Below are positions 10,820-63,414 of a stretch of 64,000 bases of DNA, piece after piece; the first letter of the stretch is position 1, and the number at the start of each line of letters is the position of its first letter. The notes below the pieces were generated by a model. It was not told the origin of the DNA and ran no database searches. It saw nothing but the letters and a program-made list of their open reading frames with translations. The translations under genes were made by a program, and so were the position numbers. Source of the DNA: a virus; the IMG/VR virus record IMGVR_UViG_3300037089_000505, positions 79,948 through 143,947 of that record; one strand, 5' to 3'.

Positions 10820-11011
10820 ATGGCTACCTTCTTACGTTTCATGGTTTTTATTGTCATGGGCGCTGGGGGTCTTTTCCTGGGCATCTTTTTAGTATATCTT
10901 GCCTGGACGTTTCTACCCTTGATACTTTCTATTTTCGCAACAGTCATAGCATTTGTGCTTTGGTGCTGGGGAGTAGTTGAAGTCGGGGCATGGGTCATAA
11001 TTTCGGCATAG
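10820..11011 (+). CDS. small membrane protein (63 aa)
   Basis: The AAAGGAAG ribosome site overlaps the T-tract end of the terminator. Two hydrophobic helices (FMVFIVMGAGGLFLGIFLVYL; LILSIFATVIAFVLWCW). Confidence 0.6.
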   Translation: MATFLRFMVFIVMGAGGLFLGIFLVYLAWTFLPLILSIFATVIAFVLWCWGVVEVGAWVIISA

Positions 11012-11019
11012 GAGAGACA

Positions 11020-11790
11020 ATGACTGATTCACTTGGCGATAGGATGAAAGGCAATTACGAAAACCGTTCTCGGTTTTACCTGACTCGAAGAACGCCTGTC
11101 ATCATTCGTGTAGATGGCCGAGCCTTTCACACTCTGACTCGCAACTGCGAAAAGCCCTTTGATGAGAGTTTGAGCAAATGCATGATCGAGACTACGATCG
11201 GACTCTGTGAAGAGATTCAAGGCGCAAAATGTGCCTACGTCCAAAGCGACGAGATCTCAATTCTGATTACCGATTATGATCGTCTTAGCTCTGGCGCCTG
11301 GTTCGACTACAACCTCCAGAAGATGGCTTCGGTCTCAGCTTCCATCGCCACTCTAGCTTTCGGTCTTTCTATAAGAAAAATCGCTGGCGATTGGAACGAT
11401 TGGAAAAGTCAAGCCAAAGCTACATTCGACTCTCGCGTTTTCAATATTCCGAGAGAAGAGGTGACCAACTATTTCGTTTGGAGACAGCAAGACTGGACTC
11501 GCAACAGCCTTGAAATGCTGGCTCGAGCCCACTATTCACACAAACAGCTGGACAAAAAGAATGGTGCAGCAATGCACGAGATGCTCCACGAGAGGGGCGT
11601 CAATTGGGCGGATCTCCCTGACAAGTGGAAGAATGGAAGTCTCATTGTCAAAGAGTCTATTCTCATAGACCTGAATCAGGACATGGTAGCTTCAAACATG
11701 CGGTCTGAGTGGAAGCCGAAAGATCCATGTCCCATTTTCAAGAACGACCGAGACGCTATCGAGAAGCTTCTCATACCTGAGGAGGTATAA
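11020..11790 (+). CDS. Thg1-like tRNA 5'-end repair polymerase
   Basis: A Thg1-superfamily nucleotidyltransferase adds nucleotides in the 3'-to-5' direction, to tRNA-His in eukaryotes or to damaged tRNA 5' ends in bacterial Thg1-like proteins. Visible motifs are PVIIRVDGRAFHTLTR (first metal-binding Asp) and QSDEISIL (second Asp/Glu pair), in the expected order and spacing in 256 residues. A GGAGAG site precedes ATG 11020; an upstream ATG at 10990 is less likely. The His tRNA at 58314 already encodes G-1, so a repair role fits better than G-1 addition. Confidence 0.88.
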   Translation: MTDSLGDRMKGNYENRSRFYLTRRTPVIIRVDGRAFHTLTRNCEKPFDESLSKCMIETTIGLCEEIQGAKCAYVQSDEISILITDYDRLSSGAWFDYNLQKMASVSASIATLAFGLSIRKIAGDWNDWKSQAKATFDSRVFNIPREEVTNYFVWRQQDWTRNSLEMLARAHYSHKQLDKKNGAAMHEMLHERGVNWADLPDKWKNGSLIVKESILIDLNQDMVASNMRSEWKPKDPCPIFKNDRDAIEKLLIPEEV

Positions 11791-17037: not shown

Positions 17038-17616
17038 ATGGAACTCTTGAAATTCATCGACACCAATTCTGATTGGAAAGAAAAAATCCAAGCCGAACCT
17101 TTTTGTGTCAAGGTTGAGGAAGACGAACACTACGTCCTTCTGAAATACGATCAGATTCATTCTGACTTCAATATTCCCATGGTTCGGGAATGTCGGGGTA
17201 TCATCCTTACCAAAGACACTCATGAAGTGGTTTGCCATCCCTTCGACAAATTCGGCAACTATGGTGAGGGATACTGCCCAGAGATAGACTGGGCTACTGC
17301 TCGAGTTCAGTCCAAAATCGATGGCTGCTGTGATGCCGATGTTAAACTCATTACCAAAACCGGTGAAAAGGCTATAAAAGAAATCGTTGAGGGCGAAGAA
17401 GTCCTCACTTTCAATTTCGAAAAAGACCAACCAGAATTTAATGTTGTAAAGGCAACTTCCAAAAAATTCAACAACAACGATTGGTATGAAATAGAACTAG
17501 AAAATGACCAGAAAATAAAACTGACTGGTAATCATCGTGTTTGGGTAGAAAATCTGAAATGTTATCGCCAAGTAAAAGATCTGAAAGGCGATGAGGAGGA
17601 GGTTAAATTTATATGA
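17038..17616 (+). CDS. RNA ligase N-terminal fragment fused to an N-terminal split intein
   Basis: Residues 1-96 are the front of an ATP-dependent RNA ligase (Rnl1-like), reaching the active-site motif SKIDG with catalytic Lys93. At Cys97 an intein begins: CCDADVKLITKTGEK matches intein block A, and LTGNHRVWV matches block B with its conserved His. The frame stops after 96 intein residues, so this is a free N-intein half. The matching half lies at 19017. Splicing would join KIDG to SLIKVW and rebuild motif I. Extein codons look GC-richer than the intein part. Confidence 0.88.
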   Translation: MELLKFIDTNSDWKEKIQAEPFCVKVEEDEHYVLLKYDQIHSDFNIPMVRECRGIILTKDTHEVVCHPFDKFGNYGEGYCPEIDWATARVQSKIDGCCDADVKLITKTGEKAIKEIVEGEEVLTFNFEKDQPEFNVVKATSKKFNNNDWYEIELENDQKIKLTGNHRVWVENLKCYRQVKDLKGDEEEVKFI

Positions 17617-17996
17617 TTTTAAAAATAATTCTAACAGTAGTAATGTTAGTAGTTGCATTAGTAGTTGGATTTTTACTACCCAATAATATAAGCTTTTTAG
17701 GCTCGCTTATTTTATTGGTAGTATTCTATGTAGTCTATTTTGTTTTTATTAAGCCAGTTATAAAAATGATCGACAAAGAGCTTCATTCATTCGAGCGTAT
17801 AAGCAAAAAAATTATTGCAAAATATGGTACCCCAGATGAGCGAGGAATTTCTATTTTTCCAGAAGAAAAAATGAGAGACGTGGGAGTATTAGAAGAGATT
17901 ACGTGGACATGGCATAAAAAAGAGGGCGACTGGAAAGTCGTTTTTTATAGAGATAAAGATGGATGGGCAGATTATGATGATGCTGCAGAAAGTTAA
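17613..17996 (+). CDS. membrane protein gene inside the split-intein cassette
   Basis: ATGA overlap with the stop of the N-intein gene. Two long TM segments (IILTVVMLVVALVVGFLL; LILLVVFYVVYFVFI), then ~80 soluble residues with KKEGDWKVVFYRD. It is not part of known intein systems and seems to be cargo in the inserted DNA. The function is unknown. Confidence 0.65.
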   Translation: MILKIILTVVMLVVALVVGFLLPNNISFLGSLILLVVFYVVYFVFIKPVIKMIDKELHSFERISKKIIAKYGTPDERGISIFPEEKMRDVGVLEEITWTWHKKEGDWKVVFYRDKDGWADYDDAAES

Positions 17997-18026
17997 GCGT
18001 CCCATCAACTTTTCATTGAATTTGAC

Positions 18027-18035
18027 AAGATAACT
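18027..18035 (+). promoter_or_regulatory. class B upstream motif (AAGATAACT)
   Basis: Starts exactly 11 nt before the endonuclease ATG, as in seven other genes. TTTGACA directly precedes it. Confidence 0.6.
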
Positions 18036-18037
18036 CA

Positions 18038-19060
18038 ATGAGAAATATAAAAGAAAGTGTTTGTGTTTGCGGACAAAAAATTACAAACATATCAGCGATA
18101 AATCATAAAAGACATTGCCCGGTCTTTTTAAAATACCGTGATAAGTGTCTCACTAAAGAATTTATTCAAAAAGAATATATTGAAAAGGGTCGGTCTTTAG
18201 AAGAAATACACAGAGAGCTTTCGATCCCAAGAAAATATATTGAAAGCAAAGTTTTAGAGTTTGGTTTCCAATTAAGAAACATAAAACAATCTAAAGCAAC
18301 TCAATACACAAAGAACAAAACGATAGCGACTACTATTGATAGATACAGCGATGTAAATGTTTTGGGCAAGAATTCGCCAATTTACAATGAAAGAAATAAG
18401 ACAGTAAAGCAAAGGTATGGCGTAAATAACGTATTTCAGCTGGCTGCCGTGAAAGAACAAATCACCAATAGTCATCTTGAAAAATACGGCAAGAAAAGAA
18501 TTACTAATGGACAAAAAATATCAACAACGAGAAAAGAAAAATTTAAAGCAGGCGAATATAAATATTTCAGTAGAGCAATGTCAGAGACAGCCAAAAGCAC
18601 TTATAATAAATTAAGCGAAAAAGAAAAAGTAGACAAAATGGTTCATATGAGAAAGTTTATAGACGTGAATTCTTTTATGTCAAGACCAGAAGAGAAAGTG
18701 GCGTTGATATTAACAGAGCTTAAGATTGAATTTCAACATACACTTTTCATAGGTCCATTTTCTTACGATTTTCATATCAAACATACGCCCGTAGTAATTG
18801 AAGTTCAAGGAGATTATTGGCACGCTTCCCCAGACAGATATGAAGCTAAAGATTTACTTAGCAGACCGGGTAATAAGCTTGTTGAAGCTCAAGAGATATG
18901 GGTCAAAGATGCGGCTAAGAGGGCATACATCGAAAAATATGGATACAAAGTTTTTTACATTTGGGAACACGAACTCAAAGATTTGAAGAGTATCGAAGGT
19001 AGGTTAATATCTCTGTATGAAGAGCATAAAAATAAAAAGCATCAAGAAGATTACAAATAA
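18038..19060 (+). CDS. Vsr-like homing endonuclease between split-intein halves
   Basis: The C-terminal ~110 residues carry a Vsr/EDxHD-type nuclease fold: SRPEEKVALIL, FSYDFHIKH, VVIEVQGDYWHA, and a late KVFYIWEHEL. The middle has DNA-binding repeats of the 'RYGVNN.FQ...KE.I..' type, and the N-terminus has a Cys/His pair cluster. It cuts DNA to spread the cassette. Its 3' end overlaps the next gene by 44 nt. Endonucleases of this family are known from 'fractured genes', where split inteins flank a free-standing endonuclease gene. Confidence 0.85.
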   Translation: MRNIKESVCVCGQKITNISAINHKRHCPVFLKYRDKCLTKEFIQKEYIEKGRSLEEIHRELSIPRKYIESKVLEFGFQLRNIKQSKATQYTKNKTIATTIDRYSDVNVLGKNSPIYNERNKTVKQRYGVNNVFQLAAVKEQITNSHLEKYGKKRITNGQKISTTRKEKFKAGEYKYFSRAMSETAKSTYNKLSEKEKVDKMVHMRKFIDVNSFMSRPEEKVALILTELKIEFQHTLFIGPFSYDFHIKHTPVVIEVQGDYWHASPDRYEAKDLLSRPGNKLVEAQEIWVKDAAKRAYIEKYGYKVFYIWEHELKDLKSIEGRLISLYEEHKNKKHQEDYK

Positions 19061-19910
19061 CTCGAAGAGATATGATGTCCAAACTGACAACGGCAATTTC
19101 TTCGCGAATAATATCCTCGTCCACAACTCTCTCATCAAGGTTTGGTACCATAACTTCTGGCACGTCTCTTCCAACGGTATGATCGACGCTGGGTCTTGCG
19201 ATCTCTCTCTTCCGTTCGGAAGCTACAAGACGCTCGGCGATCTTTTCAGCCAGGCCTTTTTCTTCAAACACAAGAAGAGCTTGAATGATCTCAACAAGAA
19301 CTACACCTATATGTTCGAGCTCATCAGCCCCTACAATCGGGTAGTCATTCCTTACACCGAGATTGACATTTACCATATCGGCACCAGGGAAACGAAGACT
19401 GGAATAGAGCTTATCATTGATATCGGAATTCAGAGACCGAAAGAATTCAATCTTCATACTCTGGATGATGTAATCGCCGCGGCAAAAGTCCTCCCCTTCA
19501 ATGATGAAGGCTACGTGGTGGTTGACGGAAAATGGAATAGAGCGAAGATCAAGTCGCCAGCTTATGTCGCCGTCCATCATCTCAGGGGCGAAGGCAATCT
19601 TTCCTACAAGCGAGTCCTGGTCTTGATCATGTCCAATGAACATACTGAGTTTCTGAACTACTTCCCTGAGTATGTTGAAGTATTCGGTCAGGTAGAAAAG
19701 AAGTATAAAGACTACGTCGAGAAACTCCTTCAGTCTGCAACTGACGCAATTCAGTATAAGAGCTTGCCTCGAAAAGAATATGCCATGTGGGCAACCAAAC
19801 AGGTTGAGCCGGCCTTTCTTTTCCAACTCCTTGATGGAAGGATCAAGACGGCTGAGGAATACTTGGAACAGGTCGGGCCCGAAAAGGTTGCCAAGAAGTT
19901 GGGATACTAA
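19017..19910 (+). CDS. C-terminal split intein fused to RNA ligase C-terminal fragment
   Basis: The first 37 residues are a C-intein: KRYDVQTDNGNFFANNILVHN fits blocks F and G, ending His-Asn. Ser38 is the +1 nucleophile. The remaining ~260 residues continue the ligase from SLIKVWYHN through MFELISP (motif IIIa-like), DEGYVVVDG (motif IV-like) and AKIKSP (motif V-like). Together with the protein from 17038 it would give a ~356-residue Rnl1-type enzyme after trans-splicing. Confidence 0.88.
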   Translation: MKSIKIKSIKKITNNSKRYDVQTDNGNFFANNILVHNSLIKVWYHNFWHVSSNGMIDAGSCDLSLPFGSYKTLGDLFSQAFFFKHKKSLNDLNKNYTYMFELISPYNRVVIPYTEIDIYHIGTRETKTGIELIIDIGIQRPKEFNLHTLDDVIAAAKVLPFNDEGYVVVDGKWNRAKIKSPAYVAVHHLRGEGNLSYKRVLVLIMSNEHTEFLNYFPEYVEVFGQVEKKYKDYVEKLLQSATDAIQYKSLPRKEYAMWATKQVEPAFLFQLLDGRIKTAEEYLEQVGPEKVAKKLGY

Positions 19911-22157: not shown

Positions 22158-22367
22158 ATGGACGACCTAATCAAAGCTCTTCAAATCATGCGGAAGTATT
22201 GTAAAAACGAATACGCTCCGTGTTCTTGTGAACACGATATTCTCTACGTCAATTGCGTGGATCCCGCTAACGTTTCTGAGGAAGACATAAAGGCACTCGA
22301 TGAATTGGGGTTCAGTCCGAATTCTTCTTGGCCAGCATTCTATTCTTTCAGATTCGGATCCTGCTAA
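22158..22367 (+). CDS. small conserved phage protein
   Basis: Recognisable phage pattern: CEHDILYVNCVDPANVSEED, then ALDELGF and a final FYSFRFGSC. Such 65-75 residue proteins occur in many phages; the function is unknown. AAGGAG site. Confidence 0.65.
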   Translation: MDDLIKALQIMRKYCKNEYAPCSCEHDILYVNCVDPANVSEEDIKALDELGFSPNSSWPAFYSFRFGSC

Positions 22368-22377
22368 GGAAAAACAT

Positions 22378-23682
22378 ATGGAACTTAAAGGAAAATACGC
22401 TAACGCAATCGTCTACAACGACTTAGTCGAGGCTACCTGTATCTCGCAGATTCTTGGCCTGTTAAACCATCCTCTGTCTGAAAACTCCAACCCTCGCTTC
22501 ATGCCAGATTTGCACGCGGGAAAAGGCTGTGTCATCGGCTATACTGCTATTCTTCCGCCTGATGGAAAGGTAGTTCCTAACCTCATCGGTGTAGATAAGG
22601 GATGTGGCGTCTATACCATTTGCCTTGGATTCTTGGCCGATATCGGCGAAAAGTTTGACAAGCTTGACAGGTTCATTCGCAACGAAATTCCTTCCGGGTT
22701 CAAGAGCAACGAACGAACCAATCAGGATCTGGAGGAAATTTTCCGAAAGGGACTTGCGAGCAATGGTCTTTATGCAAACATCCGTGATTTCGATGTCGCC
22801 CTTAAGGAAGTGTGCAAGCGTCAGGATCAGAGCTATGATGCGGTAATGAGACAGATTGGAACTCTCGGCGGTGGAAATCACTTCATTGAAGTTGGACTCG
22901 ACGAAGAGAATCGTCTTTGGCTGACGATCCACTCTGGCTCGAGACACTTCGGAAACATCAGCTGTCTCTTCCATCAGAAAAAGGCACAGAACAAATACCT
23001 CGGTCTCGATGATGAAACCTTCCGAGCAAAGGTGGAGGAAATCAAACGGACCAAGCACGGTAAAGGTATTGAAGCAGCAATTCAGAGACTCCGTTCAGAA
23101 GCCCGGAAGGGTGGCAAGAAACCCAACGGTCTTGAGTGGTTAGAGGGCAAAGATCGCGAAACTTACATTCACGACTTGAAAGTTGCTCAGTTGTATGCAA
23201 AACTCAATCGCCATACGATGGCCTACGCTATTGTGAACGGCTTCTACAAGCTGGACATTTTCAGCCTGAAGAGAATTGAGTCTGTCCACAACTACATCAA
23301 CTTCGAAGATAACATCGTTCGAAAGGGCGCGATCTCTGCTCATATCGGAGAAGAGGTTGTCATTCCCTTCAACATGAGAGACGGTTTGATCATTGGAATT
23401 GGAAAAGGAAATCCTGACTGGAACTTTTCTGCACCGCACGGGTCTGGAAGGAAGATGTCTCGTTCGGCCGCAAAAGGCCTGGACCTTGCTCATTTCGAGA
23501 AAGTTATGAAGGATGCGGGTATCTGGTCTACTTCAATAGGTAAAGACACACTCGATGAATCGCCCATGGCCTACAAGAACACTGAAGACATTGTGGCTCT
23601 TTTAGGGCCGACTGTAGAAATTAAGCATCGCGTGAAGCCAATCTACAATTTCAAGTCTGGCAAAGAAGAGGAAAGAGAATAA
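22378..23682 (+). CDS. rtcB: RtcB family RNA ligase
   Basis: Joins 2',3'-cyclic phosphate or 3'-phosphate RNA ends to 5'-OH ends using GTP and Mn. All signature blocks appear in order: DLHAGKGCVIG, GVDKGCGV (metal Asp/Cys), LGGGNHFIEV, HSGSRHFG, VHNYI, and APHGSGRKMSR with the guanylylated His. Length 434 is typical. In Archaea and animals RtcB seals tRNA exons after intron removal; in bacteria and phages it repairs cleaved tRNA. This is notable given the interrupted tRNA genes in the window. Confidence 0.93.
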   Translation: MELKGKYANAIVYNDLVEATCISQILGLLNHPLSENSNPRFMPDLHAGKGCVIGYTAILPPDGKVVPNLIGVDKGCGVYTICLGFLADIGEKFDKLDRFIRNEIPSGFKSNERTNQDLEEIFRKGLASNGLYANIRDFDVALKEVCKRQDQSYDAVMRQIGTLGGGNHFIEVGLDEENRLWLTIHSGSRHFGNISCLFHQKKAQNKYLGLDDETFRAKVEEIKRTKHGKGIEAAIQRLRSEARKGGKKPNGLEWLEGKDRETYIHDLKVAQLYAKLNRHTMAYAIVNGFYKLDIFSLKRIESVHNYINFEDNIVRKGAISAHIGEEVVIPFNMRDGLIIGIGKGNPDWNFSAPHGSGRKMSRSAAKGLDLAHFEKVMKDAGIWSTSIGKDTLDESPMAYKNTEDIVALLGPTVEIKHRVKPIYNFKSGKEEERE

Positions 23683-41001: not shown

Positions 41002-41610
41002 ATGAGAAAATTATTTCTTGTTTTGTTTTTATTCGTAGCTGCTCTTTCATTTGCTAATAAGAGCTGGTATGTAGATCAGAATGGAACTGGCATAGGAAAC
41101 TGTGGACCGGCAACGGTAGCTATGATGATTTCTTATACAGAACACGTTCGCATTCCAGTACAAGTAATTCGGGAAGAGATAGGATATACAAGAGATGATG
41201 GCAGTACAGATCTTGAAGAGTTATCAGGTGTTCTTGAGCGTCATAAAATTCGTTATTCTAAAACAGAAATAAAGACGAAGGTTGATTTGGATGAGCTTTT
41301 GGAAACTCATCACATAGTTTTAGTTGACGTAGATATGAGCTATATCCCTAATAAGAGCAACTATGATAAAGGTCACTACTTGATTCTGTCTAGCTATAGT
41401 GAAGGGACTTATGAGGCTCAAGATCCTCTTAATGGATCTGATGTTCATTACAACGCTGATGCAATATGGTCAGCTATGAAAACGAGAGAAGTACTTGTAA
41501 CTGGTAATGGAAGACTGCCACTAGTAGGTTTTGGATTTATTACCCAAATACTATTAGTCATCGACATTAGTGCTATCGTAGTTCCGAAGAAAATTATTTT
41601 GCCGTGTTAG
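41002..41610 (+). CDS. secreted C39-like cysteine peptidase
   Basis: A signal peptide (KLFLVLFLFVAALSFA) is followed by WYVDQNGTGIGNCGPATVAM with the catalytic Cys, later GHYLILSS (His) and DPLNG (Asp/Asn): the papain-like peptidase C39-like family. A periplasmic or cell-surface role is likely. It begins one base after tRNA-Asp without a ribosome site and ends inside the next tRNA, whose bases 8-10 supply its TAG stop. Confidence 0.75.
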   Translation: MRKLFLVLFLFVAALSFANKSWYVDQNGTGIGNCGPATVAMMISYTEHVRIPVQVIREEIGYTRDDGSTDLEELSGVLERHKIRYSKTEIKTKVDLDELLETHHIVLVDVDMSYIPNKSNYDKGHYLILSSYSEGTYEAQDPLNGSDVHYNADAIWSAMKTREVLVTGNGRLPLVGFGFITQILLVIDISAIVVPKKIILPC

Positions 41611-41702
41611 CTCAGTTGGTAGCAGCGTTTCCTTGGAGAATGCTTTTTTAAGAGAGCACTGTCCTAAGGAAAAGGTCCCCAGTTCAATTCTGGGACACGG
41701 CT
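41601..41702 (+). tRNA. tRNA with a 28-nt hairpin insert in the anticodon loop (probably Thr GGT)
   Basis: All arms are canonical except the anticodon loop: acceptor GCCGTGT/ACACGGC, anticodon stem TTTCC/GGAAA, 5-nt variable loop, T-arm CCCAG-TTCAATT-CTGGG. The loop from 41633 to 41667 is 35 nt instead of 7. It contains a 7-bp hairpin (41641-41647 with 41652-41658), and GGA near the 5' side can pair with TCC near the 3' side. Removing 28 nt could leave loop TTGGTAA (Thr), TTCCTAA (Arg) or Ser anticodons. The short variable loop and T discriminator favour Thr. Confidence 0.8.
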
Positions 41703-41875
41703 CTCGTCTCGACACATAGACGCATGGGTAAAACTCGAGTCAAGACCCAAGTATTCTAAAGTCTAATAGAGCAGCTTTCTAGAAAGCTATCGAGTACTTA
41801 ATTAGACATTAGCTGAACGATATCGCATTGCGATAGTAGGCGAAGTATTCAATGGCAAAGCGGTAAAGGTGCGAC
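41703..41875 (+). other. structured non-coding leader before the BMP gene
   Basis: No gene. Several perfect stems are visible: GTCTAAT/ATTAGAC enclosing AGCTTT/AAAGCT, and TATCGC/GCGATA. GGGT/ACCC encloses an ACTCGAGT palindrome. Might be a processed RNA or a set of degenerate tRNA-like folds. Confidence 0.5.
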
Positions 41876-41946: not shown

Positions 41947-43143
41947 ATGAAAAGATTCAAGAATCTGTTCTTGTTTTTGGCTGTTCTTGTATTAGCGTCA
42001 GCTAGTGCTTGGGCGATGCCAGCGGCAGGTAAGACTCTTACCATCGGATTGGTACTGGTCGGACCTTACAATGATCTAGGATGGAGTCAGGCAAATTATG
42101 ATGGCGTTCAATACGTCGTCAAGAATGTTCCTGGAGTTCAGTTCATTTATATTGACAAGGCTAATCCAGCAGACAGGCCGGGAACGACAGTGTCTCAACT
42201 AGCTGAAAGTTTGGTTGCAAAGGGCGCGAAGCTAATTATCTTCAGCTCAGATGATATGGGTGATGAGGCAGTTAAGTTTGCTACAGCGCATCCTGATATT
42301 TTCGTTGTTATGACTTCTGGTAGCCAGGTATGGAATGCTGGAAAAACCTATCAGAACCTACCGAACATGATTAACATCATGGGTCGTATGGAATTTGGCA
42401 AGATGATCGCAGGAGTTGCCGCCGCCATGACGACAAAGACTGGTAAAATTGGTTACCTCGGACCACTTATCAATGATGAAACGAGGCGATTGTGTTCTTC
42501 AGTATATCTTGGAGCCAAGTACGCTTGGACAAATTACTTGAAGAAAGATGCTGCTAAGCTTCAATTCAAGGTAACTTGGATTGGATTCTGGTTTAACATT
42601 CCGGGTATCACTTCAGATCCCTCACAAGTGGCCGATGCATTTTTCAATGATGGTTACGACGTGGTAGTTTCTGGTATTGATACTAGCGAAGTTGTTACAG
42701 AGGCAGCAAAGTTTACGGCTCAAGGCAAGAAAGTTTTCGCAATTCCTTACGATTACTCAAGCGCCTTCGCCGCTTCACCTGAGGTTAATTTGGGCGTTCC
42801 TTATTTTAATTGGGGTCCTGCTTATGTAGTAGCTGCAAAAGCTGCAATGGGTGGTTCTTGGGTTTCCCACTTTGAGTGGAACTCCCCCGACTGGAAGAAT
42901 GTTAACAACCCTGATACATCAGCGGTTGGTTTCAACAAGGGCAAGGCACTTTCACCTAAGGCTTCGGCTGCAGTTGATAAGTTTCTTTCCGAACTTGCAT
43001 CAGGACTTAACCTATGGAAAGGTCCTATGAAGCTTCAAGATGGTAAGACCTACTTGGTCGATGACCAGAAGGCAACAGATCAGCAGATCTGGTATTTGCC
43101 TCAACTCTTGGAAAATATGCAAGGACAGAGCGTTTCGAAGTAG
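41947..43143 (+). CDS. BMP/PnrA-family periplasmic solute-binding protein
   Basis: A signal peptide (FLFLAVLVLASASAWA) and a ~375-residue two-lobe binding protein of the basic membrane protein (BMP) group: KTLTIGLVLVGPYNDLGWSQ at the start, then KGAKLIIFSSDDMG, KTGKIGYLGPL and GYDVVVSGIDTSE. BMP proteins bind purine nucleosides or related ligands for ABC importers. No lipobox Cys is present, unlike most BMP lipoproteins, and no permease genes follow. A viral copy is unusual. GAGGAG site at 41936. Confidence 0.85.
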   Translation: MKRFKNLFLFLAVLVLASASAWAMPAAGKTLTIGLVLVGPYNDLGWSQANYDGVQYVVKNVPGVQFIYIDKANPADRPGTTVSQLAESLVAKGAKLIIFSSDDMGDEAVKFATAHPDIFVVMTSGSQVWNAGKTYQNLPNMINIMGRMEFGKMIAGVAAAMTTKTGKIGYLGPLINDETRRLCSSVYLGAKYAWTNYLKKDAAKLQFKVTWIGFWFNIPGITSDPSQVADAFFNDGYDVVVSGIDTSEVVTEAAKFTAQGKKVFAIPYDYSSAFAASPEVNLGVPYFNWGPAYVVAAKAAMGGSWVSHFEWNSPDWKNVNNPDTSAVGFNKGKALSPKASAAVDKFLSELASGLNLWKGPMKLQDGKTYLVDDQKATDQQIWYLPQLLENMQGQSVSK

Positions 43144-43152
43144 TATTACAAT
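43134..43152 (+). promoter_or_regulatory. class A-like element (TTCGAAGTA-N4-TACAAT) at the BMP stop codon
   Basis: Same string and spacing as the class A promoters, here overlapping the TAG stop and just before a terminator. A start point would fall inside the terminator stem, so activity is doubtful. Confidence 0.4.
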
Positions 43153-43154
43153 TA

Positions 43155-43179
43155 GAGGGCAAGGCTTCTTGCCCTCTTT
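43155..43179 (+). terminator. intrinsic terminator
   Basis: 9-bp GAGGGCAAG/CTTGCCCTC stem with a GCTT loop and a short T tract. Confidence 0.8.
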
Positions 43180-43182
43180 CAC

Positions 43183-43256
43183 TCGCCCTTGGCCAAGTGG
43201 ATTAAGGCAGAAGACTTTGGATCTTCTATGCGCAGGTTCGAATCCTGCAGGGCGAA
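43183..43256 (+). tRNA. tRNA-Gln(TTG)
   Basis: Acceptor TCGCCCT/AGGGCGA, anticodon arm GAAGA-CTTTGGA-TCTTC, T-arm GCAGG-TTCGAAT-CCTGC, discriminator A. U1-A72 is typical of Gln. Confidence 0.9.
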
Positions 43257-43265
43257 TATTTACAC

Positions 43266-43340
43266 TGTCCCGTAGCTTAGCTGGCCGAAAGCGTCTGTCT
43301 CTGGAACAGAAGAGCCTCCGTTCAAATCGGAGCGGGACAA
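43266..43340 (+). tRNA. tRNA-Gln(CTG)
   Basis: Acceptor TGTCCCG/CGGGACA, anticodon arm TCTGT-CTCTGGA-ACAGA, T-arm CTCCG-TTCAAAT-CGGAG, discriminator A. Confidence 0.9.
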
Positions 43341-43354
43341 AAAGAAAGGGAAAC

Positions 43355-43771
43355 ATGGAACTAATAATTTCAATCGGTCTCCCCGGCTCTGGCAAATCTA
43401 CTTACTATCGCACAGCGCTTGCGAAAAGTCACACACAAATCTCCAAGGATCTAATGAGCGGCTCTCCAACTAGAAAAAATCAGATTCAGATTGACATGAT
43501 TACTCAATCTCTAACTAAAGGATTGAATGCAGTAATCGACAATACTAGTGTCACAGCTGAAGTTCGGAGGCCTTTAATTGAGCTCGGCCACAAACTTGGC
43601 GCAAAGGTAATTGCGTATTACTTTCCGACTTCAGTCAAAGATTGTATTGCTCGCAATGCTCAGCGAACGGGTAGGGCTAAAGTACCAAATGTGGCTATCT
43701 ACACTATGGCAAAGAAGCTTCAAGGGCCAACAAAAGCTGAAGGCTTTGACGACATAATTACGATCAATTGA
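43355..43771 (+). CDS. polynucleotide-kinase-like P-loop protein
   Basis: GLPGSGKSTYY at residues ~8-18 is a Walker A loop of the T4 Pnkp kinase-domain type. VIDNTSVTAEVRRPL carries the Walker B-like Asp. The rest (KVIAYYFPTSVKDCIARNAQR, then a lid Arg pair) matches small phage/bacterial AAA kinases. It would phosphorylate 5'-OH ends of nucleic acid, feeding the RNA or DNA ligases. There is no phosphatase domain. AAAGGGAAA site. Confidence 0.8.
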   Translation: MELIISIGLPGSGKSTYYRTALAKSHTQISKDLMSGSPTRKNQIQIDMITQSLTKGLNAVIDNTSVTAEVRRPLIELGHKLGAKVIAYYFPTSVKDCIARNAQRTGRAKVPNVAIYTMAKKLQGPTKAEGFDDIITIN

Positions 43772-51698: not shown

Positions 51699-51783
51699 GG
51701 GAGAGCGGCGAAGTTGGAGAGTCGCGGGAGTCCGTAAAATTCTTGCCGTTCGGCTGAGTCGGGTTCGAATCCCACCTCTCCCA
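51699..51783 (+). tRNA. tRNA-Tyr(GTA), class II, C33 variant
   Basis: Acceptor GGGAGAG/CTCTCCC, D-stem GCGA/TCGC, anticodon loop CCGTAAA, long variable arm with GCCG-TT-CGGC, discriminator A. The T-stem fits GTGGG/CCCAC only with one bulged C, so it may be imperfect. Confidence 0.75.
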
Positions 51784-57415: not shown

Positions 57416-57541
57416 GGGAGTGTAGCTTAGAGTGCATAGTAAGGGCGCTACAGCATTGATCACACTACTGTAGAAGAGCTACTATGACGGCAGAGCGGTC
57501 TCTAACCGGGGCGAACGCTGGTTCGAATCCAGCCACTTCCG
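57416..57541 (+). tRNA. tRNA with a ~57-nt structured insert in the D-loop (anticodon probably TCT, Arg)
   Basis: Acceptor GGGAGTG/CACTTCC, D-stem GCTT/GAGC and T-arm GCTGG-TTCGAAT-CCAGC frame a tRNA. Between the D-stem halves lies an insert with CATAGTA (57435) pairing TACTATG (57480), and inside it CTACAG (57448) pairing CTGTAG (57468). The anticodon arm is weak (CGG-TCTCTAA-CCG, 3 bp) and would read TCT with C33. Could be a processed precursor or a decaying gene. Confidence 0.6.
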
Positions 57542-61138: not shown

Positions 61139-61786
61139 ATGATTGAGTATCCATCAATAATCAATAGTTCAAAAGCTCCACGTAAGCCAATGATAGCTTT
61201 TGAAAAAATCGATGGCAGCAATATCCGCATTAAATGGACACACAAAAGGGGCTTTGACCTTTTTGGTAGCCGGCAACAGTTGCTTGACTCTAGTCATCCT
61301 AGTCTGGGCGGAGTAGTCCAGATCTTCAACGAGCGCTACAAAGATGCTCTTGAGGAAACTTTCAGACATGAGTATGGGAAAGAGAATGAGATCATTGTCT
61401 TCGGCGAATACTTTGGACCCAGCTCTTTCGCCGGAATACATAGCGATCCAATTTCAGCAATGAATTTCTATCTGTTTGATATCCTTTTTGTAAAAAAGAG
61501 CTACACAGAATTTCTTTTGCCACAAGATCTCGTCAAGATCTTCCCCAAATTCGAAAGATTTGGGATGCCTGTACCAAGAGTTGTCTATGAGGGGAACCTC
61601 ACTGATGATTTTATCAGACGGGTCCGCGAAAATGAATTCAATTTGAATGAGGGCGTCGTCTGCAAAGGCACTCAACGTCTTGGATCTTTCCGTGGCAAAG
61701 TCTGGATGTGCAAAATCAAAACGAACGCCTATCTTCAACGTCTCAAAACTAGATTCCAGGAGGACTGGAACAAGTATTACGAATAG
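61139..61786 (+). CDS. ATP-dependent RNA ligase (Rnl2-like)
   Basis: Motif I is AFEKIDGSNIRIKW (catalytic Lys ~23). GEYFGPSSFAG is motif III/IIIa, LNEGVVCKG motif IV and WMCKIKT motif V. At 215 residues it is a minimal nucleotidyltransferase domain with little beyond the core. Seals 3'-OH/5'-PO4 RNA nicks. GAAGGAG site follows tRNA-Asn directly. Confidence 0.88.
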   Translation: MIEYPSIINSSKAPRKPMIAFEKIDGSNIRIKWTHKRGFDLFGSRQQLLDSSHPSLGGVVQIFNERYKDALEETFRHEYGKENEIIVFGEYFGPSSFAGIHSDPISAMNFYLFDILFVKKSYTEFLLPQDLVKIFPKFERFGMPVPRVVYEGNLTDDFIRRVRENEFNLNEGVVCKGTQRLGSFRGKVWMCKIKTNAYLQRLKTRFQEDWNKYYE

Positions 61787-62800: not shown

Positions 62801-63361
62801 ATGATTTGCGAAAATTGCAGCAAAGATTTCTCTGAAGATTGGCGAATAGGTAAAAAGAGAGGACTATTACGGTTCTGCTCTTCACGATGTGCAAAGCGTC
62901 GAAAACAAACTGATGCGATTAGAGAGGCAAAAAGTAAAGCTAGCAAAGCTGCTTGGAAAAGAGGTGTCTATAAAAATCAATACAATCACACTTTTTCAAA
63001 AGCAGACAGAAAAAAGGGCATTGATACTTGTATAGAAAAAGCTAAAACAAGAAACGCAGAACTATTAGCCACTCATCAATATGAAAAAATGAGCAATGAG
63101 GTTAGAAGACGATTTATCCTCGACGAAGTTAATCATGCCTGTGAGTCATGTCATAATTCAGAGTGGCTTGGAAAACCAATATGGTTAGAAATACATCACA
63201 AGGATGATGATAATACGAACAATAAACGCGACAATCTTTTAGTTCTTTGTCCAAATTGTCATTCAGCAATAGATGAGAAATATAGGTTTAGAGGGCGAAG
63301 TAGAAAAAAGACCGAAAGTAGCTCAGTTTGGCTTAGAGCATCTGCCTTATCGGAAGCATAG
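62801..63361 (+). CDS. HNH homing endonuclease (186 aa)
   Basis: N-terminal zinc motif CENCSKDF...CSSRC, then CESCHNSEWLGKPIWLEIHH and NLLVLCPNCHS, the HNH core. The C-terminal 16 codons run into the interrupted tRNA-Ile gene, and its TAG stop lies in the tRNA insert. A free-standing endonuclease abutting an interrupted tRNA suggests it moves with, or targets, that locus. Confidence 0.82.
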   Translation: MICENCSKDFSEDWRIGKKRGLLRFCSSRCAKRRKQTDAIREAKSKASKAAWKRGVYKNQYNHTFSKADRKKGIDTCIEKAKTRNAELLATHQYEKMSNEVRRRFILDEVNHACESCHNSEWLGKPIWLEIHHKDDDNTNNKRDNLLVLCPNCHSAIDEKYRFRGRSRKKTESSSVWLRASALSEA

Positions 63362-63414
63362 GTTGAGTGCTTCAGATAAGCAGGGGGTCGGTGGTTCAAA
63401 TCCACCCTTTCGGA
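63312..63414 (+). tRNA. tRNA-Ile with a 27-nt hairpin insert in the anticodon loop
   Basis: Canonical otherwise: acceptor CCGAAAG/CTTTCGG, D-stem GCTC/GAGC, anticodon stem TCTGC/GCAGG, variable GGGTC, T-arm GGTGG-TTCAAAT-CCACC. The loop (63346-63379) is 34 nt. CTTATC pairs GATAAG and inside it GAAGCA pairs TGCTTC. Removing 27 nt leaves CTGATAA (anticodon GAT) or CTTATAA (TAT), both Ile. Confidence 0.85.

What the first reader, a model, noticed from the sequence alone, without database searches (positions are those of the whole stretch)
63312..63414. Second tRNA (Ile) interrupted at the same place by a 27-nt hairpin
An independent tRNA with perfect acceptor, D, variable and T arms has a 34-nt anticodon loop. 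The insert extends the stem (CTTATC/GATAAG, then GAAGCA/TGCTTC). Insert length and location match the Thr case, while its sequence differs. Two cases argue for a mechanism rather than decay. An HNH endonuclease gene runs into it.
Basis: partly seen in the sequence, partly recalled or inferred. Interest (0 to 1): 0.9.

Follow-up and report, generated by a model that had tools for sequence, protein, structure and literature searches.

The report
Hairpin mini-intron in phage tRNA-Ile
A large bacterial virus carries transfer-RNA genes interrupted beside or within the anticodon by a 27-28-base hairpin, and unrelated viruses carry the same kind of insert in other tRNAs with the folds preserved, which points to an overlooked type of small, non-self-splicing intron in viruses of bacteria.

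Summary
At 63312-63414 a well-formed tRNA (Rfam 53 bits) has a 34-nt anticodon loop: a 7-nt Ile(UAU) loop plus 27 nt. A second tRNA, 41601-41703, best read as Thr(GGU), has a 28-nt insert. This is not decay. Scans of IMG/VR found the same kind of 25-29-nt hairpin insert in about a dozen unrelated phage tRNAs (Arg UCU, Ile UAU, Thr, Leu). T4-like Aeromonas phages (Aeh1, PX29, Ah1 and others) carry it in tRNA-Arg, where it had been annotated as tRNA-Glu or tRNA-Lys, or missed. Phage phiAS5 has the uninterrupted tRNA-Arg(UCU) at the same locus, which places the insert exactly between U36 and A37. Both tRNA body and hairpin show compensatory changes. One Arg-specific pattern had a single hit in 84,980 cellular genomes, in an archaeon. 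No archaeal-type splicing endonuclease was found in 11 phage records. Most carriers encode T4-type RNA ligases; few encode RtcB. Most likely this is a mini-intron cut as double-stranded RNA (2-nt 3' overhangs, RNase III-like geometry) and sealed by a phage RNA ligase. Splicing itself is not shown. Prior art: tRNA introns of unknown kind were reported in Lak megaphages in 2019.

The parts
63312..63414 (+). tRNA-Ile(UAU)-type gene with interrupted anticodon loop
   Evidence: Rfam RF00005 53.2 bits; ARAGORN with introns; stems counted
63346..63350 (+). 5' half of the anticodon loop, C32-U36 (CTTAT)
   Evidence: sequence; 36|37 register taken from the phiAS5 empty allele of the Arg case, not proven for Ile
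63351..63377 (+). 27-nt hairpin insert (in 36|37 register); apical loop about 63360-63366
   Evidence: folds
63378..63379 (+). 3' half of the anticodon loop, A37 A38
   Evidence: sequence
41601..41702 (+). second interrupted tRNA, best read as Thr(GGU)
   Evidence: ARAGORN with introns; fold; U73, G1-C72 and C2-G71 as in the two other Thr tRNAs of the window
41637..41664 (+). 28-nt hairpin insert of the Thr tRNA (35|36 register)
   Evidence: geometry
62801..63361 (+). HNH-type endonuclease ORF overlapping the first 50 nt of the Ile tRNA
   Evidence: ORF list; weak HNH_2 / HNH_3 / HNH matches below curated cut-offs plus CxxC...LEIHHKDDDNTNN...NL..LCPNCH motif
61139..61786 (+). Rnl2-like RNA ligase, candidate sealing enzyme
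   Evidence: Pfam PF09414, E 5e-16
17038..17616 (+). N part of T4 Rnl1-like RNA ligase plus N part of an intein
   Evidence: Pfam PF09511 and PF14890, both below curated cut-offs; BLASTP to Rnl1 of another carrier, E 2e-8
19017..19910 (+). C part of the intein plus C part of the Rnl1-like ligase
   Evidence: Pfam PF14890, below cut-off; BLASTP to PX29 Rnl1, E 5e-7
22300..23682 (+). RtcB ligase, alternative sealing enzyme
   Evidence: Pfam PF01139, E 1.5e-56
43040..43771 (+). AAA_33 P-loop kinase, possible polynucleotide-kinase-like protein
   Evidence: Pfam PF13671, E 6e-16

Best explanation
The 27-nt insert is a mini-intron in a functional tRNA-Ile(UAU) gene. In the precursor the anticodon pairs with the intron, so the anticodon stem becomes one long hairpin. 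A double-strand-specific endonuclease of RNase III type (host or phage) makes a staggered cut after U36 and before A37 and releases the hairpin. The resulting 3'-OH and 5'-P ends, with a 2-nt 3' overhang, are sealed by a phage RNA ligase (Rnl1 or Rnl2 type; RtcB in a few phages after end repair) to give a normal CUUAUAA loop. Shown by sequence comparison: the insert, its recurrence, the exact insertion point in tRNA-Arg, and selection on the tRNA body and the hairpin. Inferred: that the insert is removed, the endonuclease, and the ligase.
For: Recurrence: an anticodon-blind scan for 23-28-nt inserts found the same architecture in L030, L094, L243, L244 (Arg UCU), L097/L241 (Ile UAU) and L375 (Thr UGU), with further hairpin inserts in L201 and L376. 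An Arg-specific scan added L245, L303, the L306 group, the L308 group, L318 and L347. Relatives of the window phage carry it in tRNA-Leu(UAA) and another tRNA. Empty allele: phiAS5 has plain tRNA-Arg(UCU), loop CTTCTAA, at the locus where Aeh1, PX29, Ah1, avDM12, AsFcp_1/2/4 and phiWae14 carry inserts. Covariation: 95.5% of cells paired, 17 pairs with changes on both sides, 0/500 shuffles as high; slid structures give 1-5. Gap filling: in the fetched tRNA clusters of PX29, G007 and G008 no other Arg tRNA was seen; the window has no other Ile or Thr(GGU). Geometry: the cut pair that gives the expected anticodon leaves a 2-nt 3' overhang in 13 of 15 arms, although the register differs (36|37 in most, 35|36 in window Thr and L376). 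Ligases: Rnl1 and/or Rnl2 type in G000, G001, G002, G003, G006, G007, G010. One cellular hit of one Arg pattern in 84,980 genomes.
Against: No RNA data. No endonuclease identified. Two carriers (G008, G009, possibly incomplete contigs) show neither PF09414 nor PF09511. Two of 15 arms (Leu of G001, and G002) give a 1-nt offset. The Arg and Ile scans imposed CTTCT...AGAA or CTTAT...ATAA, so the first 4 intron pairs and part of the geometry are built in for those; only the synteny-found Aeromonas loci and the anticodon-blind scan are free of that. For Ile the three possible registers give one product, so the 2-nt register is chosen, not observed. RNA ligases are common in large phages anyway (5 of 20 control contigs), and G001 and G002 were found through the ligase.
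Confidence: 0.6

Rival explanations
1. The insert is an intron, but removal is archaeal/eukaryal-like: an endonuclease leaves 2',3'-cyclic phosphate and 5'-OH ends that RtcB, or Pnkp plus Rnl1, joins.
For: RtcB is encoded in the window phage and in G003/G004; T4 Pnkp/Rnl1 repair anticodon-loop breaks of this end type (PMC3400036).
Against: No tRNA_int_endo (PF01974) in 11 records while it was found in 4 archaeal controls; RtcB found in only 2 of 10 carrier records, which look like the same phage; no bulge-helix-bulge in the folds.
Confidence: 0.15
2. The insert stays in. The RNA is a tRNA-like molecule with an enlarged anticodon arm, used as a decoy for anticodon nucleases or another regulator rather than in decoding.
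For: The hairpin itself is under selection; host defences cut anticodon loops and phage tRNAs evade them (PMC10264068, title and abstract; read no further).
Against: An uninterrupted functional allele exists at the same site; the interrupted gene is the only Arg or Ile gene seen in several phages; the joined product is a proper 7-nt loop with an anticodon that fits the body (Arg, Ile, Thr, Leu).
Confidence: 0.13
3. A dead or decaying gene hit by a small palindromic insertion.
For: Phage tRNA clusters hold defective-looking copies, for example 57416-57541 and the weak match at 51699-51783 in the window.
Against: Same architecture and narrow length range in unrelated phages; acceptor, D and T stems 100% paired with compensatory changes across the Aeromonas phages; acceptor, T and anticodon stems intact in both window cases.
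Confidence: 0.05
4. Primarily a selfish or protective insert tied to homing endonucleases: an adjacent free-standing nuclease cuts uninterrupted tRNA genes at the anticodon arm and the insert makes the site resistant and is co-copied. This is compatible with splicing but puts selection on DNA.
For: HNH ORF runs into the Ile tRNA; in phiWae14 a 246-aa ORF with only sub-threshold domain matches sits directly behind the interrupted tRNA; Ah1/avDM12 and Aeh1 have near-identical inserts in diverged tRNA bodies.
Against: Most carriers inspected have no such neighbour annotated at the tRNA; does not by itself explain why tRNA body and hairpin keep their folds.
Confidence: 0.07

Closest known systems
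tRNA introns of Lak megaphages (Devoto et al. 2019, PMC6784885)
   Same: Introns of unclassified kind in phage tRNAs, 1-4 per genome, alleles with and without; one intron itself looks like a tRNA. No splicing mechanism is mentioned in the main text searched.
   Different: A hairpin class with 25-29 nt, position 36|37, anticodon-intron pairing and covariation is not described in the passages I could read (supplement not readable here).
Archaeal and eukaryal protein-spliced tRNA introns (EndA/SEN; PMC4090602)
   Same: Short insert in the anticodon loop, intron pairs with the anticodon.
   Different: Canonical site is one nucleotide 3' of the anticodon (37|38); needs bulge-helix-bulge and EndA-type endonuclease; neither seen here.
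Bacterial group I introns in tRNA anticodon loops (PMC3984707, PMC4090602)
   Same: Interrupt bacterial or phage genes, some in the tRNA anticodon region, often with homing endonucleases.
   Different: Group I introns are hundreds of nt with a catalytic core; 27 nt cannot hold one and no Rfam intron family matched.
T4 Pnkp/Rnl1 tRNA repair after PrrC cleavage (PMC3400036)
   Same: Phage ligase seals a break in a tRNA anticodon loop.
   Different: There host tRNA damage is repaired; here a phage pre-tRNA would be the intended substrate.
Haloarchaeal virus HGTV-1 Rnl2 ligases (PMC8651126)
   Same: Virus with many tRNAs and Rnl2-type ligases suggested to act in tRNA intron removal.
   Different: Archaeal virus, where a host EndA would be available (inference); the phages here infect bacteria where the host is known (Aeromonas).

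Membership tests
tRNA (RF00005) | Covariance-model match with all stems | tested here: met
   53.2 bits, full length; stems paired
Group I intron | Catalytic core / Rfam match | tested here: not met
   Insert is 27 nt; no intron family in cmscan
Archaeal/eukaryal tRNA intron (EndA-dependent) | Bulge-helix-bulge at the exon-intron junctions | tested here: not met
   Folds show a C32 bulge and a continuous 4-5-bp or longer helix, no pair of 3-nt bulges
Archaeal/eukaryal tRNA intron (EndA-dependent) | EndA-type endonuclease encoded | tested here: not met
   PF01974 absent from 11 phage records, present in 4 archaeal controls; hosts not examined
Phage tRNA intron as in Lak phages | Same tRNA known with and without the insert | tested here: met
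   Arg(UCU): phiAS5 empty, eight Aeromonas phages filled. For the window Ile itself no empty allele was found
Spliced tRNA intron (any kind) | Joined mature tRNA in RNA | not testable with these tools
   No transcript data available
RNase III substrate | Staggered cut leaving 2-nt 3' overhangs at the required junctions | tested here: inconclusive
   Geometry fits in 13 of 15 arms, partly built in by the Arg/Ile search patterns; cleavage untested

The most novel reading that the evidence does not exclude
Bacterial viruses have their own protein-based tRNA splicing, independent of EndA: hairpin mini-introns excised by an RNase III-type cut and sealed by phage Rnl1/Rnl2 ligases. Alongside it are two further insert types seen here, introns that are themselves mini-tRNAs ending in CCA (removable by RNase P and 3' tRNA processing) and a 42-49-nt structured insert in the anticodon stem. 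Phage RNA ligases would then be splicing enzymes as well as repair enzymes.
Probability: 0.35. Interest if true: 0.95.

Novelty: new variant of a known kind. Interest (0 to 1): 0.8.

Why it matters
tRNA introns in bacteria and their viruses are generally taken to be self-splicing group I introns. A recurrent, conserved mini-intron class in phages would mean protein-based tRNA splicing in bacterial cells. It would give phage RNA ligases a second natural role, and standard gene finders mislabel or miss such tRNAs (Aeh1 tRNA 'Glu', PX29 tRNA 'Lys', Ah1 none). Because Aeh1, Ah1 and PX29 are isolated phages, the question can be tested directly.

Tried and rejected
RNA ligase next to the tRNA in Aeromonas phages: rejected, the gene annotated 'RNA ligase' (57B) is an Acb1 homologue (PF23474, E 1e-35). 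RtcB as common factor: absent from most carriers. EndA-like endonuclease: none. Group I intron: none. Close relative of the window phage with an empty Ile allele: not found; BLASTN to INPHARED gave only a short match in a tRNA-Met of MT835997, and the ligase search gave two distant relatives with uninterrupted Ile(tat) genes elsewhere. ARAGORN intron calls needed filtering: long variable arms and tandem tRNAs produce false introns. Ligase enrichment: 5 of 7 carriers not found through the ligase (one of them the window phage itself) against 5 of 20 control contigs for PF09414, suggestive only.

Full report
What is there. The window is 79948-143947 of a 143,947-bp virus record and ends at the contig end. 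The gene at 63312-63414 is a good tRNA by covariance model (53.2 bits) that ARAGORN sees only when introns are allowed. Its anticodon loop is CTTATCGGAAGCATAGGTTGAGTGCTTCAGATAA, 34 nt. Removing 27 nt gives CTTATAA, anticodon UAU, for any split from 34|35 to 36|37. The arm folds as stem, bulged C32, UUAUC/GAUAA, a G.A mismatch, a 7-bp helix and a 7-nt loop; the whole RNA folds far better than shuffles (z -4.5). Its D stem is imperfect.

Is it a one-off? Pattern scans of IMG/VR say no. An anticodon-blind scan for tRNAs with 23-28-nt inserts in the loop left, after requiring paired acceptor, T and anticodon stems, nine distinct cases including the window's: Arg(UCU) in L030, L094, L243, L244; Ile(UAU) in L097/L241; Thr(UGU) in L375; and L201 and L376. 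Seven of the nine have the C32 bulge and a helix between anticodon and insert, which this scan did not impose. An Arg-specific scan without a D-arm requirement added several more. The two distant relatives found by the window's RNA ligase carry inserts in tRNA-Leu(UAA) (28 nt) and in another tRNA (24 nt). The Arg pattern (with D arm) had one match in 84,980 bacterial and archaeal species genomes, in an archaeon. That scan covers one anticodon only, so absence from bacteria is shown for that pattern, not in general.

Isolated phages and an empty allele. L347, L030 and L318 are Aeromonas phages Aeh1, PX29 and Ah1 (100% matches). The tRNA lies behind gene 57B and is annotated tRNA-Glu in Aeh1 and a two-piece tRNA-Lys in PX29, and is not annotated in Ah1. 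The 2006 genome paper lists Glu UUC among its predicted tRNAs, reports no group I introns in these genomes and does not mention this insert in the passages searched (PMC1524935). In phiAS5 the same locus has an ordinary tRNA-Arg(UCU), loop CTTCTAA, with a body very similar to PX29. The insert therefore sits exactly between U36 and A37 in tRNA-Arg. For the window Ile this register is by analogy.

Selection. Among the Aeromonas tRNAs, 95.5% of the cells of the full structure are paired, 17 pairs have changes on both sides, and no shuffle of 500 reaches this; slid structures give 1-5. Acceptor, D and T stems are 100% paired. Within the insert, columns 39/64, 40/63, 42/61, 43/60, 44/59 and 46/57 change on both sides. 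The shuffle test ignores relatedness, but the slid control keeps it. So both the tRNA and the hairpin are kept. In the fetched clusters of PX29, G007 and G008 no other Arg tRNA was seen, and the window has no other Ile tRNA; G003, G009 and G010 do have further tRNAs for the same amino acid or codon box.

How it may work. Self-splicing is excluded by size. EndA-type splicing finds no enzyme and no bulge-helix-bulge. In 13 of 15 arms, the pair of cuts that yields the expected anticodon is offset by two base pairs with 3' overhangs, the product geometry of RNase III, and this holds for 36|37 and for the two 35|36 cases; the Leu and G002 cases give one. For Arg and Ile part of this follows from the search pattern, and for Ile the register is not unique, so it is a lead. 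RNase III leaves 5'-P and 3'-OH, the substrates of Rnl1/Rnl2 ligases (established knowledge; ligase substrates in PMC7824862). Such ligases occur in G000, G001, G002, G003, G006, G007 and G010 but not detectably in G008 and G009. Control contigs: 5 of 20 for PF09414. The window phage has an Rnl2-like ligase 1.5 kb from the tRNA, an Rnl1-like gene interrupted by an intein directly after the KxDG motif with the two halves in separate ORFs, and RtcB.

Relation to known work. Phage tRNA introns as such are not new: Lak megaphages were reported in 2019 to have 1-4 tRNA introns each, called enigmatic, one of which looks like a tRNA (PMC6784885). I could not read that supplement. What is new here, as far as the searched library shows, is the hairpin class with its fixed position, length and anticodon pairing, the covariation, the empty allele, and its presence in isolated T4-like phages. 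Ten paper searches of open-access texts are not proof of absence.

Verdict. Observation confirmed; 'mechanism not decay' supported; splicing likely but not shown; enzyme assignment open.

Noticed in passing
L127:8073-8216, L001:135-258, L004:2659-2780, L009:4219-4339, L019:4213-4366: Phage tRNAs whose anticodon-loop insert is itself a mini-tRNA: 7-bp acceptor plus T arm ending in NCCA (44-77 nt); removal gives proper loops (Asn GUU, Ile UAU, Arg UCU). L008:4972-5124 holds what reads as a full tRNA-Phe. Resembles the tRNA-in-intron of Lak phages.
   Followed up: partly
L273:676-1205, L286:1273-1398, L288:6012-6139, L028:1800-2355, L016, L051, L077, L116: Another insert class: about 42-49 nt inside the 5' strand of the anticodon stem, with a variable-stem hairpin (loop starting CUG/CUU) followed by CAGCAA or CUGCAA, up to four adjacent tRNAs in one phage; loop CUG could pair with CAG.
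   Followed up: partly
window 17038-19910: T4 Rnl1-like ligase split by an intein right after KIDG (N part 17038-17616, C part 19017-19910 beginning ...HN|SLIK), with a REase-like ORF 18038-19060 between them.
   Followed up: partly
window 57416-57541: tRNA-like gene with a hairpin of about 52 nt in the D loop (Rfam 33.8 bits); anticodon arm poor.
   Followed up: no
L351:2555-3049 (Aeromonas phage Aeh1 gene 57B): Annotated 'RNA ligase' in RefSeq but matches Acb1 anti-CBASS protein (PF23474, E 1e-35).
   Followed up: yes
L359:3082-3822 (phiWae14): 246-aa ORF without clear domain directly behind the interrupted tRNA-Arg; only sub-threshold zinc-ribbon and DUF7487 matches; DUF7487 also weakly matched by window ORF 18038-19060.
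   Followed up: no
window 10990-11790: Thg1-like tRNA 5'-end polymerase encoded in the phage (PF04446, E 2e-28).
   Followed up: no
window 51699-51783: Weak tRNA match (27 bits, below cut-off) followed by another tRNA-like stretch; may be a degraded pair.
   Followed up: no
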